The notes under the pieces were generated by a model. That model was given only the letters and a program-made list of their open reading frames with translations, did not search any database and was not told the origin of the DNA. A stretch of 64,000 bases of DNA from contig NZ_CP060695.1 in the NCBI RefSeq assembly GCF_014352875.1, positions 2,821,501 through 2,885,500 on the forward strand. The letters are read 5' to 3'. Position numbers and translations under genes: made by a program. Shown one piece after another: positions 54,975 through 59,043 of the stretch. This DNA is from Polaribacter pectinis (GTDB lineage: Bacteria > Bacteroidota > Bacteroidia > Flavobacteriales > Flavobacteriaceae). Each line of letters starts with the position of its first letter. The first letter of the stretch is position 1.

Positions 54975-56240
54975 TTGAATAAAACAAAAGAAATTTGGAT
55001 TGCCGGTTTTGCACTTTTCTCGCTCTTTTTTGGCGCAGGAAATTTAATTTTACCACCATCTTTGGGCGCAAATTCTGGTGCAGATTGGTGGATTGTTGTG
55101 TTGGGTTTTGTTTTAACAGCAGTCACTATTCCTATTTTGGCAATTTTCGCACACGCAAAATTACAAGGAACTTTATACGATTTTGGTAAAAAAGTTTCAC
55201 CTCTTTTTAGTACAGTTTATTGTTTACTTATTTACAGTATAGCCATCGCAATTCCTTCACCAAGAACAGCTGCAGTTACGCATGAAATGACTGTGCAACC
55301 ATTTTTTGAAACTACACCACTTTTAACAAGTGTAATTTATTTTGTGTTGGTTTTTATTTTTGCCATAAACAGGACAAGAGTAATTGGTTTAATTGGTAAG
55401 TTTTTAACGCCAATTATTGTGCTGATTCTACTAATAATTATCGGAATTGCATTTTTTACTTCATCAGGAACTGTAAATCCATCTACTTTTCAAACACCTT
55501 TTGTAGACGGAATTTTAGAAGGTTATCAAACTTTTGATGCAATTGGAGGTGTTGTTGTTGGAGCTGTAATTATTATCTCTTTAAACTATAGTTCGCACAC
55601 AACTTTCGATGCCAAAAGAAGACTTATTAGAAAAGCTGGTTTTATTGCAGGAGCAGGATTGTTATTAATTTACGGAGGTTTAATTTTAAGTGGATCTTTA
55701 TTTAGTTCAACATTTGCTGAAGGCGCTTCCAGAACTGAAATTTTATCCAGTTTAAGCACACAAACTTTAGGACATTTAGGAACTACTTTTTTAAGTGTTT
55801 TGGTTGCTTTGGCGTGTTTTACGACAGCAGTTGGTATTGTAACAGGAACAGCAGATTACATCAAAGGAATTTCCAACGATTCTAAAAAAGCGTATATAAT
55901 TACTGCTGCAATTGCTTCCATAATCGGAATTTATGTTGGTAGTAGAAAGGTTGATTTAATAATAGAGTTAGCAGTGCCAGCACTAATGTTTTTATATCCA
56001 ATAACTATTGTTTTGATTTTACTAAACATTGTTCCCGATAAATATGCATCTAAATTGGTGTTTAGAGGTGTAGTTTTAGTGACGTTTATTTTTAGTATTC
56101 CAGATTTTTTAGGATTTGTAATTCCAAGAGAAAATTTAGTGGGAATTAAAAATATAATTCCATTAGCAAACTCAAGTTTAGGTTGGGTAATTCCTGCTAT
56201 TTTGGTGTTTTTTGGGTTGAATTTGATTAATAGAAAGTAA
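54975..56240 (+). CDS. brnQ: Branched-chain amino acid transporter BrnQ
   Basis: A 421-residue LIVCS-family cation symporter with about twelve membrane helices. The N-terminal IWIAGFALFSLFFGAGNLILPP is the family signature, and AIGGVVVGAVIII and ATFLSVLVALACFTTAVG are conserved. The start is TTG at 54975, 2 bases after the stop of the serine hydrolase; no ATG fits. It imports leucine, isoleucine or valine at the inner membrane. The AraC gene follows 52 bases later. Confidence 0.93.
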   Translation: MNKTKEIWIAGFALFSLFFGAGNLILPPSLGANSGADWWIVVLGFVLTAVTIPILAIFAHAKLQGTLYDFGKKVSPLFSTVYCLLIYSIAIAIPSPRTAAVTHEMTVQPFFETTPLLTSVIYFVLVFIFAINRTRVIGLIGKFLTPIIVLILLIIIGIAFFTSSGTVNPSTFQTPFVDGILEGYQTFDAIGGVVVGAVIIISLNYSSHTTFDAKRRLIRKAGFIAGAGLLLIYGGLILSGSLFSSTFAEGASRTEILSSLSTQTLGHLGTTFLSVLVALACFTTAVGIVTGTADYIKGISNDSKKAYIITAAIASIIGIYVGSRKVDLIIELAVPALMFLYPITIVLILLNIVPDKYASKLVFRGVVLVTFIFSIPDFLGFVIPRENLVGIKNIIPLANSSLGWVIPAILVFFGLNLINRK

Positions 56241-56291: not shown

Positions 56292-57131
56292 TTGGCAGTC
56301 CAAGACATTACAAAATATTCGTTTAAAGATACTTTTTCATTAAGTAAAGTTCAGTTCGATAAAGCGTGTACAATAAATCATAAAGAGCAAATAAATGCAT
56401 ATTCAATTTATTGGATTCAAGAAGGAAAAGGAACGTACAATATCGATTTTGAAGAATATACTTTTAATGATAATGTGTTGTTTTTTCTTTCTCCAGGACA
56501 AGTTTTTACAGTCGATTCAGAAAAAATAAAAACAGCTTTTAAACTTACTTTTGTACGAGATTTTTACTGCATACAAACGCACGATAAAGAAGTTGCTTGT
56601 AACGGAATTCTCTTCAACAATATTTATGAAACTCCGTTTGTAAAACCATGCGAAAAAGATACAGCAAAACTCAATTTTATTTTAGAGAGTTTGGTGGAGG
56701 AATTTCAGCAAAACGAAACTGCGCAATATGACATGTTGCAGGCCTATTTAAAGCAATTTATCATTCATGCAGTTCGTGTAAAAAAGGAAAATCACGTTAT
56801 AAAAGAAGACACAGAAACCCGTCTTTTTAAAGATTTTAGTTTGTTGGTAGAGCAGAATTTTAGAACGATGCATTCTGTAACAGATTATGCAAATAGATTA
56901 GGAATTTCGCCAAAATCTGTCACGAAACATTTTCAGAAATTGGGTACAAAAACACCATCAGAATTTATTAAAAATCGCATTTTATTAGAAGCAAAACGTC
57001 AGTTAATTTATACAAATAAAACTGTAAAAGAAATCGCTTTCGAACTCGGTTTTAACGATCCTGCCTATTTTACGCGCTTCTTTACCAAGTCAATTTCCAA
57101 ATCTCCACTTCAATTTAAAAAGGAACATTAG
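56292..57131 (+). CDS. AraC family transcriptional regulator
   Basis: A 279-residue regulator. The N-terminal cupin-like domain (SIYWIQEGKGTYNIDFEEYTF, then LFFLSPGQVF) probably binds the effector. The C-terminal two helix-turn-helix motifs are YANRLGISPKSVTKHFQKLG and TVKEIAFELGFNDPAYFTRFF. TTG at 56292 is the only reasonable start in frame. It lies just upstream of two identical-type promoter modules with paired TGTCCA half-sites, so it is the likely activator of the thioredoxin/AhpD operon. Confidence 0.9.
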   Translation: MAVQDITKYSFKDTFSLSKVQFDKACTINHKEQINAYSIYWIQEGKGTYNIDFEEYTFNDNVLFFLSPGQVFTVDSEKIKTAFKLTFVRDFYCIQTHDKEVACNGILFNNIYETPFVKPCEKDTAKLNFILESLVEEFQQNETAQYDMLQAYLKQFIIHAVRVKKENHVIKEDTETRLFKDFSLLVEQNFRTMHSVTDYANRLGISPKSVTKHFQKLGTKTPSEFIKNRILLEAKRQLIYTNKTVKEIAFELGFNDPAYFTRFFTKSISKSPLQFKKEH

Positions 57132-57148
57132 CATCCATTTTTTTATTA

Positions 57149-57260
57149 GGGCGTGCCTTTTTTCATAAAAGAAAAAAGTCAGGCTTTCACAACTCGCTTT
57201 TTTAAGTTTTATCAAACTTAAAAAGAGCTCAAACAACCTGTTCAATCCTTCACGAGTGCA
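57149..57260. repeat. Structured interspersed repeat, copy 1
   Basis: Begins GGGCGTGCC and contains hairpins CTTTTTTC/GAAAAAAG and CTTTTTTAAGTTT/AAACTTAAAAAG, framed by ACTCGC and GAGCTCA, then CAATCCTTCACGAGTGCA. A related, truncated copy starts at 63941. Stem sequence differs but pairing is retained. I recall similar GGGCGT...CAATCCTTCAC elements in Flavobacteriaceae intergenic regions. It occupies much of the 344-base gap after araC; the remainder is the AraC promoter and trxA leader. Confidence 0.6.
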
Positions 57261-57281: not shown

Positions 57282-57343
57282 TGTCCAAACAGAAGGAACT
57301 TTTGTCCATTTTTAAACCTTCATGTTGGTTGCATCTTTGCAGT
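57282..57343 (+). promoter_or_regulatory. AraC-type operator and promoter module, copy 1 (trxA)
   Basis: TGTCCA half-sites at 57282 and 57303 are spaced exactly 21 bases, two helical turns, the usual layout for AraC-family binding. A -7-like box CATCTTTG (57332-57339) follows with GCAGT after it. The 62-bp block is 55/62 identical to 57803-57864. A leader of about 130 bases separates it from trxA. Confidence 0.7.
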
Positions 57344-57360
57344 ATCAAAACGAAAAGTGT

Positions 57361-57414
57361 TTTTGAGAGCATCTCAAAATTCCTTTAAAATTGTCTTTCC
57401 TGCGTATGCAGGAA
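57361..57414 (+). other. Two hairpins in the trxA leader
   Basis: TTTTGAGA-GCA-TCTCAAAA (57361-57379) and TTCCTGC-GTAT-GCAGGAA (57397-57414) are perfect stems in the untranslated leader. The second looks like the TTCCTGC...GCAGGAA palindrome seen in flavobacterial intergenic DNA. Either a regulatory leader or inserted REP-like DNA. Confidence 0.4.
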
Positions 57415-57475
57415 TTAAATTAATCATTTTAAGAAAGTCTTAAAAGAACATCAAAATATAAAATAAAACAAAAAA

Positions 57476-57790
57476 ATGGAAGCACAATTAGAACAAACAA
57501 ATTTCACAAAAGTCATTGAGAATAATAGCAATGTATTATTAGATTTTTATGCAGATTGGTGTGGACCTTGTCAAACTTTATTGCCAACGATTCACAAATT
57601 AGCAGACGAATTAAAAGATGAGATTACCATCAAAAAAGTAAATGTAGATGAGTATCCAGAAATCGCATCAAAATTCGGAATTAGAAATATACCAACTTTA
57701 ATTTTCTTTAAAGACGGACAAGCAACAGACAGACACACAGGTTTAATTAACGAAAGTAATTTAAGAGACAAAATTAACAGTTTAAAGTAA
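57476..57790 (+). CDS. trxA: Thioredoxin
   Basis: A 104-residue cytosolic thioredoxin with active-site WCGPC at residues 28-32 and the cis-Pro loop FGIRNIPTLIFFKDG. It reduces disulfides in partner proteins. Here it is set in an AraC-controlled operon with an AhpD-like protein and a cupredoxin, so it may be a dedicated reductant rather than the main cellular thioredoxin. The second promoter module follows 13 bases after its stop. Confidence 0.94.
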   Translation: MEAQLEQTNFTKVIENNSNVLLDFYADWCGPCQTLLPTIHKLADELKDEITIKKVNVDEYPEIASKFGIRNIPTLIFFKDGQATDRHTGLINESNLRDKINSLK

Positions 57791-57802
57791 GCTTTTTTAG
57801 GC

Positions 57803-57864
57803 TGTCCAAACCAAAGGAACTTTTGTCCATTTTTAAAGGTTGAAGTTGGTTGCACCTTTGCAGT
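57803..57864 (+). promoter_or_regulatory. AraC-type operator and promoter module, copy 2 (microprotein/AhpD/cupredoxin)
   Basis: The same module as copy 1: TGTCCA at 57803 and 57824 (21 bases apart), common AAGGAACTTTTGTCCATTTT, and -7-like box CACCTTTG with GCAGT. It lies directly after trxA and starts a transcript about 30 bases before the microprotein. Confidence 0.7.
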
Positions 57865-57895
57865 GTAAAACTGTAATAAGTAAAATATAACAATT

Positions 57896-57994
57896 ATGAA
57901 AACAATAGAACAAACACAATGTCCAAACTGTTGGGGTTACCAAACGTATGATGAGCAAAACCCAGAACAACAAGTTTGCGATTGCAAAAATTAG
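57896..57994 (+). CDS. 32-residue Cys-rich microprotein
   Basis: MKTIEQTQCPNCWGYQTYDE followed by QNPEQQVCDCKN. It has a CPNCWG motif and a C-terminal CDC that together look like a compact zinc ribbon or redox site. The ATG has a suitable leader after promoter module 2. I recall longer flavobacterial proteins starting with a CPNCWG core, so this may be a short form. The function is unknown; the operon suggests redox or metal handling. Confidence 0.7.
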   Translation: MKTIEQTQCPNCWGYQTYDEQNPEQQVCDCKN

Positions 57995-58049: not shown

Positions 58050-58601
58050 ATGAGCACATTTAATGTACTAACAAAAAACGAAGTATCAGAAAATAACCAA
58101 GCAATCTTTAATCAATTAGAAAAAGGGTTAGGTTTTGTACCAAATTTATATGCAACTTTTGCACACAGTGAAACAGCTTTGGCAAACTTTTTAGCAATAG
58201 GAAATGGTAAAACAAGCTTTTCAGCAAAAGAAAAAGAAGTAATTAATTTGGCTGTAAGTCAAGTAAACGAATGTGTGTATTGTTTATCTGCACACACAGC
58301 AATTGGTAAAATGAACGGTTTTACAGAAGACCAAATTTTAGAATTAAGAGCAGGAACAGCTTCTTTCGATTCAAAATTAGATGCTTTGGCAAAATTTGCA
58401 AGAAACATCGCTTTAAATAGAGGAGCAACAGATGCAACAATTTTAGAAAACTTATTCGAGCAAGGTTACACAAAAGGAAACGTTGCAGATGCAGTTATTT
58501 TAGTAGGAGAAATTACAATTACAAACTATTTACACAGAACAACAGAAGTAGCAGTAGATTTTCCAGAAGTAGAAGTATCAGATATTTTAGAAACAGTTTA
58601 A
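58050..58601 (+). CDS. Carboxymuconolactone decarboxylase family protein (AhpD-like), copy 2
   Basis: A 183-residue AhpD-like protein. ECVYCLSAH gives Cys75, Cys78 and His82, the redox-active set. GLGFVPNLYATFAHSETALANFL is typical of the family's N-terminal helices. It lies in the AraC-controlled operon with thioredoxin upstream, a likely electron donor. It differs clearly in sequence from copy 1 at 44407 while keeping the same motif and core. Peroxidase activity is an inference. Confidence 0.9.
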   Translation: MSTFNVLTKNEVSENNQAIFNQLEKGLGFVPNLYATFAHSETALANFLAIGNGKTSFSAKEKEVINLAVSQVNECVYCLSAHTAIGKMNGFTEDQILELRAGTASFDSKLDALAKFARNIALNRGATDATILENLFEQGYTKGNVADAVILVGEITITNYLHRTTEVAVDFPEVEVSDILETV

Positions 58602-58634: not shown

Positions 58635-58991
58635 ATGAAAAAAATAATCGCAATTTTAGTATTAATAGTTGGTTTTGCATTCAATACAAATGCACAAGAA
58701 GTTAAAACAGTTTCTTTAGAGCAAACAAAAGGAGAATTTACACAAATGCAAATTACGTTATCTGAAGGAACGTATGTTTTTGAAATTTCTAACAACAATG
58801 TTGGACATAATATTGGGTTTGTTTTAGCACCAAAATCGGATGTAAAAGCGCACATAAAAAACGCGTATGTAACAGAACAAGTGAAGAATAATACAAAGCA
58901 AACATCTAAAAATGTAACACTTAAAAAGGGAGAATACGTTTATTTCTGTCCTTTAAATCCAACACCTCAATATACTTTAATAGTAGAATAG
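58635..58991 (+). CDS. Secreted cupredoxin-like protein
   Basis: A 118-residue protein with signal peptide (IIAILVLIVGFAFNTNAQ) and a cupredoxin-like beta-sandwich: YVFEISNNNVGHNIGFVLAP supplies His, and YVYFCPLNPTPQYTLIV supplies Cys. A third ligand is less clear, and the usual His/Met after the Cys are missing, so blue-copper function is uncertain. It would be periplasmic, unlike the cytosolic thioredoxin. It ends the operon before a strong terminator. Confidence 0.8.
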   Translation: MKKIIAILVLIVGFAFNTNAQEVKTVSLEQTKGEFTQMQITLSEGTYVFEISNNNVGHNIGFVLAPKSDVKAHIKNAYVTEQVKNNTKQTSKNVTLKKGEYVYFCPLNPTPQYTLIVE

Positions 58992-59011
58992 TTTTTAAGT
59001 TTAGTTAGTTG

Positions 59012-59043
59012 AAAAGACGAGCAGAAATGCTCGTCTTTTTTTT
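59012..59043 (+). terminator. Rho-independent terminator of the AraC-controlled operon
   Basis: AAAAGACGAGCA and TGCTCGTCTTTT flank GAAA and are followed by a T-run. Confidence 0.9.

What the first reader, a model, noticed from the sequence alone, without database searches (positions are those of the whole stretch)
57282..57864. Duplicated AraC-type promoter module controlling a thioredoxin/AhpD/cupredoxin operon
Two 62-bp blocks (57282-57343 and 57803-57864) are 55/62 identical without gaps. Each has TGTCCA half-sites exactly 21 bases apart, followed by a -7-like box. They lie just after an araC gene. One drives trxA, the other the microprotein, AhpD-like and cupredoxin genes. The module marks the regulator's DNA site and predicts a small redox regulon of unknown inducer.
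Basis: partly seen in the sequence, partly recalled or inferred. Interest (0 to 1): 0.7.

Follow-up and report, generated by a model that had tools for sequence, protein, structure and literature searches.

The report
AraC-switched redox promoter, duplicated
Next to a regulator gene in a marine bacterium lie two copies of a short control sequence that is probably the regulator's own on-switch for a small set of redox genes; in related bacteria regulator and switch are mostly kept together or missing together.

Summary
Confirmed: 55/62 ungapped identity, TGTCCA pairs 21 bp apart, -7-like boxes. No other place in the 3.47 Mb genome scores above 16 bits against 64-66 for these two, which helped train the profile. 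One genome keeps two modules on another contig than its araC; another has one before a doxX-like gene. Against: two loci outside that count hold an apparently intact araC without module or operon. One module is the commonest state; trx came or went with the second copy several times. In the wider class, 13 of 20 AraC relatives with both sensor cysteines lie beside an AhpD-like (CMD) gene, and 7 of 29 loci have a module-like site before CMD. Likely mechanism: a thiol-sensing class II AraC activator working like RclR-RclX, though without RclR's domain. The 'cupredoxin' lacks the copper-ligand set. Inducer unknown; binding untested.

The parts
56292..57131 (+). AraC-family regulator, 279 aa, TTG start; C26, C93, H97, C103 invariant among orthologues
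   Evidence: Pfam HTH_18/HTH_AraC; 69 of 69 orthologues, window included, keep the four residues; model resembles AraC-type regulators
57282..57344 (+). Promoter module 1: half-sites 57282-57287 and 57303-57308, conserved AGGAAC 57294-57299, -7-like box 57332-57339, predicted start about 57344 (half-sites begin at about -62 and -41)
   Evidence: start inferred from the -7 box position reported in PMC9723704 (passages)
57476..57790 (+). thioredoxin (WCGPC), 104 aa, behind module 1
   Evidence: TIGR01068 113.4 bits, cut-off 96.8
57803..57865 (+). Promoter module 2: half-sites 57803-57808 and 57824-57829, -7-like box 57853-57860, predicted start about 57865
57896..57994 (+). microprotein, 32 aa, CPNCWG...CDC
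   Evidence: found in 58 of 69 loci; C9 and C12 in all 57 aligned, C28 84%, C30 77%; no Pfam or NCBIfam family
58050..58601 (+). AhpD-like / carboxymuconolactone decarboxylase (CMD) family protein, CxxCxxxH
   Evidence: PF02627 and TIGR00778; C75, C78, H82 in all 58 aligned
58635..58991 (+). cupredoxin-fold protein with signal-like start, without a conserved copper-ligand set
   Evidence: PF13473; of 57 aligned H73 in all, C105 98%, H58 42%; no Met follows C105 in the window protein
59011..59040 (+). terminator-like hairpin, 13 pairs, then T run

Best explanation
Each module is a promoter switched on by the adjacent AraC-family protein. Two AraC DNA-binding units occupy the tandem sites (TGTCCA..AGGAAC and TGTCCATTTT, two helical turns apart). 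The promoter-proximal site sits where a -33 element would be and helps the housekeeping polymerase start at a deviant -7 box. Module 1 makes thioredoxin; module 2 makes the Cys microprotein, the AhpD-like protein and the cupredoxin-fold protein as an operon ending at the hairpin. Shown by comparison: site, position, the araC-module pairing, the gene sets. Inferred: binding, activation, tandem occupancy. Less sure: AraC senses a thiol oxidant or electrophile through its conserved cysteines (about 0.5); the natural inducer is a reactive halogen or similar oxidant (about 0.3).
For: Of 116 genus genomes module and araC occur together in 58 and both are absent in 55. In G400 araC is broken (two in-frame TAA; open frame ends at ELGH, before the last helices) and module and operon are gone (the same contig as L039). 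Modules persist unlinked from araC: a pair on another contig before trx and CMD-Cup in G380, and one about 20 kb away before a DoxX-family gene in G332. 62 of 69 araC loci have a module within 2.5 kb 3' of araC; 3 of the other 7 are cut by the contig end. In 7 of 29 distant class loci (AraC 37-41% identical) a module-like site (21-23 of 28; best of 18 block shuffles 19) ends 29-44 bp before a CMD gene, also where gene order differs. The window's modules have no TTG near -33, and the -7 box begins with C in all 48 aligned modules, as expected of an activator-dependent promoter.
Against: No binding, start-site or expression data. Activation rather than repression is argued from geometry. L025 and L040 have an araC without stop codons but no module, microprotein, CMD or Cup. 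G309 and G357 have a module but no araC found, at 67% and 70% completeness. L021, outside the 48, has a standard TAnnTTTG box. 10 of 30 distant AraC proteins with both cysteines show no CMD gene in the stretch held. Of 13 class loci with both cysteines and CMD, 5 show no site of 21 or more and 1 is cut off there. C26 is kept in 2 of 21 distant CMD-linked proteins. The sensor loop is low confidence in the model (residues 91-113 under pLDDT 50). Linked loci share descent; no test was corrected for it.
Confidence: 0.8

Rival explanations
1. AraC uses the module to repress, not activate: it sits on the promoter and leaves when a ligand binds.
For: The proximal site abuts the promoter; AraC proteins can repress (recalled).
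Against: Sites lie upstream of the predicted start (about -62 and -41), no TTG near -33 in the window's modules, and a deviant -7 box in all 48 aligned (L021, not among them, has a standard one). In the one genus genome where araC is broken the operon is lost, a single case.
Confidence: 0.12
2. The module serves another regulator, and araC is linked only by shared descent of the locus.
For: Most sites are linked to araC, so shared descent contributes to the co-occurrence; L025 and L040 have araC without module.
Against: The site is kept when unlinked from araC in genomes that have araC (G380, G332), and recurs before CMD near AraC relatives of 37-41% identity in other gene orders.
Confidence: 0.05
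3. The regulator senses a small organic ligand (for example an aromatic acid) in its cupin-like domain, and the CMD protein acts in catabolism rather than redox defence.
For: CMD-family proteins include a decarboxylase (family name); the best NCBIfam match of the regulator is HpaA, an aromatic catabolism regulator, far below its cut-off (126.8 against 274.65 bits).
Against: Operon partners are thioredoxin, a Cys microprotein and once DoxX, with no catabolic enzyme seen; the CMD protein keeps CxxCxxxH; the two cysteines of the AraC domain are kept in 20 of 21 distant CMD-linked relatives.
Confidence: 0.25
4. The repeats are copies of a mobile or repetitive element.
For: A true dispersed repeat lies just upstream (57172-57254).
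Against: Two module copies in the genome and one to three strong ones per genome in the 60 genus genomes that have any, 74 of 81 of them 3' of araC.
Confidence: 0.01

Closest known systems
Pseudomonas aeruginosa RclR-RclX
   Same: AraC-family regulator beside an AhpD/CMD-like gene that it switches on, there under HOCl and HOSCN (PMC7950407, passages seen).
   Different: The P. aeruginosa RclR sequence was not compared here; the passages seen name no thioredoxin, microprotein or cupredoxin-fold partner and give no binding site.
Escherichia coli RclR-RclABC
   Same: AraC family; activated by oxidation of Cys21 and Cys89 (PMC7464077, passages seen). Two weak alignments put C26 opposite RclR C21 and C93 opposite RclR C86, three residues before C89.
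   Different: 19% identity, E 0.055; hhalign probability 46%; RclR has Pfam Cupin_6, this protein does not; none of the rclABC genes in this operon.
E. coli AraC at araBAD
   Same: Direct half-sites spaced 21 bp next to the promoter (recalled); AraC regulatory domain among the fold matches.
   Different: No sugar-pathway genes; different site sequence; conserved cysteines in the sensor domain. The best full-length fold matches are ToxT, CsvR and Rns, at 10-18% identity.

Membership tests
AraC/XylS family | C-terminal double helix-turn-helix domain | tested here: met
   PF12833 75.9 bits and PF00165 35.8 bits, both above cut-off
AraC/XylS family | N-terminal regulatory domain of AraC type | tested here: inconclusive
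   Foldseek matches to RhaR, BgaR and AraC regulatory domains, but mean pLDDT 76.5 and the 91-113 loop under 50; PF02311 15.4 bits, below its cut-off 21.1
AraC/XylS family | binds its tandem half-sites | not testable with these tools
   needs a gel shift or footprint
RclR | Cupin_6 N-terminal domain | tested here: not met
   present in E. coli RclR, not found here at E 0.1
RclR | redox-active cysteine pair in the N-terminal domain | tested here: inconclusive
   C26, C93, C103 in 69 of 69; alignment to RclR C21 and C86 is weak; redox activity not testable
RclR | responds to reactive chlorine | not testable with these tools
   needs expression assays
AhpD / CMD family | CxxCxxxH motif | tested here: met
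   C75, C78, H82 in all 58 aligned; TIGR00778 55.3 bits, cut-off 27.8
blue copper cupredoxins | two His, one Cys, one Met as copper ligands | tested here: not met
   of 57 aligned C105 98%, H73 100%, H58 42%; no Met after C105 in the window protein

The most novel reading that the evidence does not exclude
A class-wide thiol-switch regulon of Bacteroidota: a branch of AraC regulators with a Cys-x3-His-x5-Cys sensor loop, long paired with a TGTCCA-N15-TGTCCA-type promoter on AhpD-like genes, serving as this class's counterpart of RclR in defence against reactive halogens (in the sea perhaps HOBr from algae), with a zinc-knuckle-like 32-aa microprotein as a new member of the pathway in Flavobacteriaceae.
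Probability: 0.3. Interest if true: 0.75.

Novelty: new variant of a known kind. Interest (0 to 1): 0.55.

Why it matters
The regulator-site pair gives a ready search key for a redox regulon in Bacteroidota, where few oxidant-sensing activators are known (recalled). It points to one regulator, one 62-bp site and five target genes that can be tested in a single strain, and to a conserved microprotein that matched no Pfam or NCBIfam family. The repeated gain or loss of trx between two promoter copies shows a gene joining or leaving a regulon together with its own promoter.

Tried and rejected
Repeat-element reading: rejected on copy number. Copper-protein reading of the cupredoxin: not supported. 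Structure of the cupredoxin-fold protein alone: mean pLDDT 48, not used. Sigma-70-type promoter scan: 11 found, 9.2 expected in shuffles, not used. Third site in this genome: the four next-best profile matches lie inside long open frames. Ten weak family-level profile loci (24-30 bits) were fetched: nine hold an AraC relative with a CMD or isochorismatase gene, the tenth (L176) neither. Literature: no paper on this circuit was seen in the listings of searches (nothing found; 1 listed; 11 listed); for Polaribacter with hypobromous or haloperoxidase 10 of 36 were listed, none on this. PMC10434189 (passages) lists a CMD and an AraC gene in an iron table; not used. One search stopped on a start-codon assumption and was redone, which reuses its gene table. 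One Fisher table was typed with a wrong cell (11 for 10) and recomputed. Direction of the trx change: in L005 the single module has the upstream flank of module 1 and the downstream flank of module 2, which fits excision and insertion alike; the upstream likeness is partly the dispersed repeat. Of six single-module loci compared, L022, L021 and L009 do not show a clear match of the downstream flank, and L008 and L020 none of the upstream flank. Not done: a tree-corrected test of the cysteine-CMD association; reading the distant matches beyond the 29 fetched; a protein search for araC in the 299 family genomes.

Full report
What is there. The window lies in a 3.47 Mb single-contig genome; the best relatives of its araC in the species collection are Polaribacter. 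An AraC-family gene (56292-57131) is followed by module 1, a thioredoxin gene, module 2, a 32-codon gene, an AhpD-like (CMD) gene, a cupredoxin-fold gene and a terminator-like hairpin. The two 62-bp blocks are 55/62 identical.

Beyond chance and specific. The exact double hexamer occurs four times in the genome; the other two lie inside long open frames. A 63-position sequence profile made from 48 modules, the window's two included, gives them 66.5 and 63.9 bits; the next place in the genome has 16. In 299 genomes sampled from the family the strict pattern occurs in 11 and its reversed control in none; with the profile 21 genomes have a site of 51 bits or more and 8 others only weak ones of 24-30 bits.

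Shape of the site. Among the 48 modules 28 columns never vary. Nineteen of these were fixed by the pattern used to pick the modules; the other nine, TT after the second hexamer and GCA..TTTG, are free of that choice. Profile-scored loci show that the first hexamer can vary: L009, L021 and L022 begin AGTCC. Upstream flanks fall to background. The -7 consensus of flavobacterial sigma-A is TAnnTTTG at -12 to -5 (PMC9723704, passages). By that rule starts fall near 57344 and 57865 and half-sites begin at about -62 and -41. The T of TAnnTTTG is C in all 48, but L021 has a standard box. No TTG stands near -33 in the window's modules. This is the geometry of an AraC-type activator overlapping the -35 region (recalled).

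The regulator is the neighbour. In 116 genomes of the genus a strong module (40 bits or more) is in 60 and an araC orthologue (E 1e-70) in 59; 58 have both, one araC only, two a module only, 55 neither (Fisher p 2e-29, not corrected for relatedness). The araC-only genome, G400, has a broken araC and no operon. The two module-only genomes are 67% and 70% complete. Of 81 strong sites 74 lie 13-4257 bp 3' of araC on its strand. Of the other seven, two are at contig ends, two are a pair on contig C9 of G380 whose araC is on C1, one stands before a DoxX-family gene in G332, two are in the incomplete genomes.

Gene content. Among 69 loci (window plus 68 of the 69; L073, 24% identical, left out), 39 have one module and no thioredoxin gene, 14 thioredoxin with two modules, 6 thioredoxin with one, 1 two modules without it, 4 no module, and 5 are cut by the contig end (2 of these with one module) (module = 25 bits or more of a matrix made from the same loci). 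Of the four without a module, L010 has the operon but an unresolved stretch before it, L039 has the broken araC, and L025 and L040 have an araC free of stops but neither module nor operon. The last two speak against a strict pairing, unless their araC is on the way out. On the araC tree the thioredoxin-with-two-modules state needs 9 changes, at least 5 forced by well supported branches; the bootstrap had not settled. In the nearest relative, L005, the single module has the upstream flank of module 1 and the downstream flank of module 2. In L023 both modules are identical over 63 bp.

The sensor. C26, C93, H97 and C103 are in 69 of 69 orthologues. In 41 distant AraC proteins (29 class loci, 10 family or genus loci, 2 paralogues of this genome): both C93 and C103 with a CMD gene nearby 20; both without CMD 10; not both, with CMD 1; neither 10 (p 0.0014). 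The family loci were found through their sites; for class loci and paralogues alone the table is 13, 7, 1, 10 (p 0.0068). Relatedness is not corrected, and class loci hold only about 1.5 kb on each side. Two weak alignments place C26 on RclR Cys21 and C93 on RclR Cys86, but C26 is kept in only 2 of 21 distant CMD-linked proteins. In the model the 91-113 loop is unsure.

A wider circuit. Of 29 class loci 9 have a module-like site of 21-23 of 28 points (18 shuffles in two-base blocks: at most 19). In 7 (L185, L186, L187, L190, L194, L195, L196) it ends 29-44 bp before a CMD gene; in L192 before a gene that looks thioredoxin-like by eye, in L188 before another gene 3' of araC. Of the 13 class loci with both cysteines and CMD, these are 7; L191 is cut off before its CMD gene; L197, L203, L204, L207 and L208 show no site of 21 or more. 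Family loci L168, L172 and L177 have such a site before a gene for an isochorismatase-domain protein (Pfam for L172; the others by similarity to it; sites). Of the 8 scanned class loci whose AraC lacks the cysteine pair and has no CMD gene, one reaches 20 points and one 19.

What it does. CMD/AhpD genes answer thiol oxidants elsewhere: RclX of P. aeruginosa is switched on by RclR under HOCl and HOSCN and protects (PMC7950407, passages); a CMD gene of Burkholderia cenocepacia is strongly upregulated by NaOCl, listed as 35.1 (PMC2830190, passages). E. coli RclR is activated by oxidation of Cys21 and Cys89 (PMC7464077, passages). By analogy the inducer here may be a reactive halogen or another thiol oxidant. 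That is inference.

Verdict. An ordinary type of regulator with an unusually clear and far-kept site, a plausible thiol sensor and a microprotein without a family. No paper on this circuit appeared in searches (open-licence papers only).

Noticed in passing
window 57172-57254: Member of a dispersed repeat: 39 matches at E 1e-3 or better in this genome, counting the query itself and one self-match on the other strand; the other 37 are 72-93% identical.
   Followed up: partly
window 57396-57414: Palindrome-like CCTGCGTATGCAGG in the trx leader; the 19-base pattern occurs once in this genome.
   Followed up: partly
L061 and L037, microprotein gene: The Trp codon of CPNCWG reads TGA in one Kordia and TAG in one Lacinutrix MAG; error, decay or recoding not resolved.
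   Followed up: partly
L005-L072, CMD gene: The CMD protein comes in two types: 68-95% identical to the window's in the Polaribacter loci and some others, about 32-42% in most of the rest, behind the same kind of module.
   Followed up: no
L164:6148-8364: Beside the broken araC of G400 stands a NorB-type nitric oxide reductase gene.
   Followed up: no
L130:3195-4034: A 51% identical AraC paralogue in G406 has mainly the promoter-proximal part of the module downstream.
   Followed up: no
window 54975-56240: A branched-chain amino acid transporter gene lies directly before araC, and near araC in many relatives.
   Followed up: no
L172:2774-6282: An araC locus with two modules, one before an isochorismatase-domain gene and one before CMD, YHS-like and DUF1348 genes.
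   Followed up: partly
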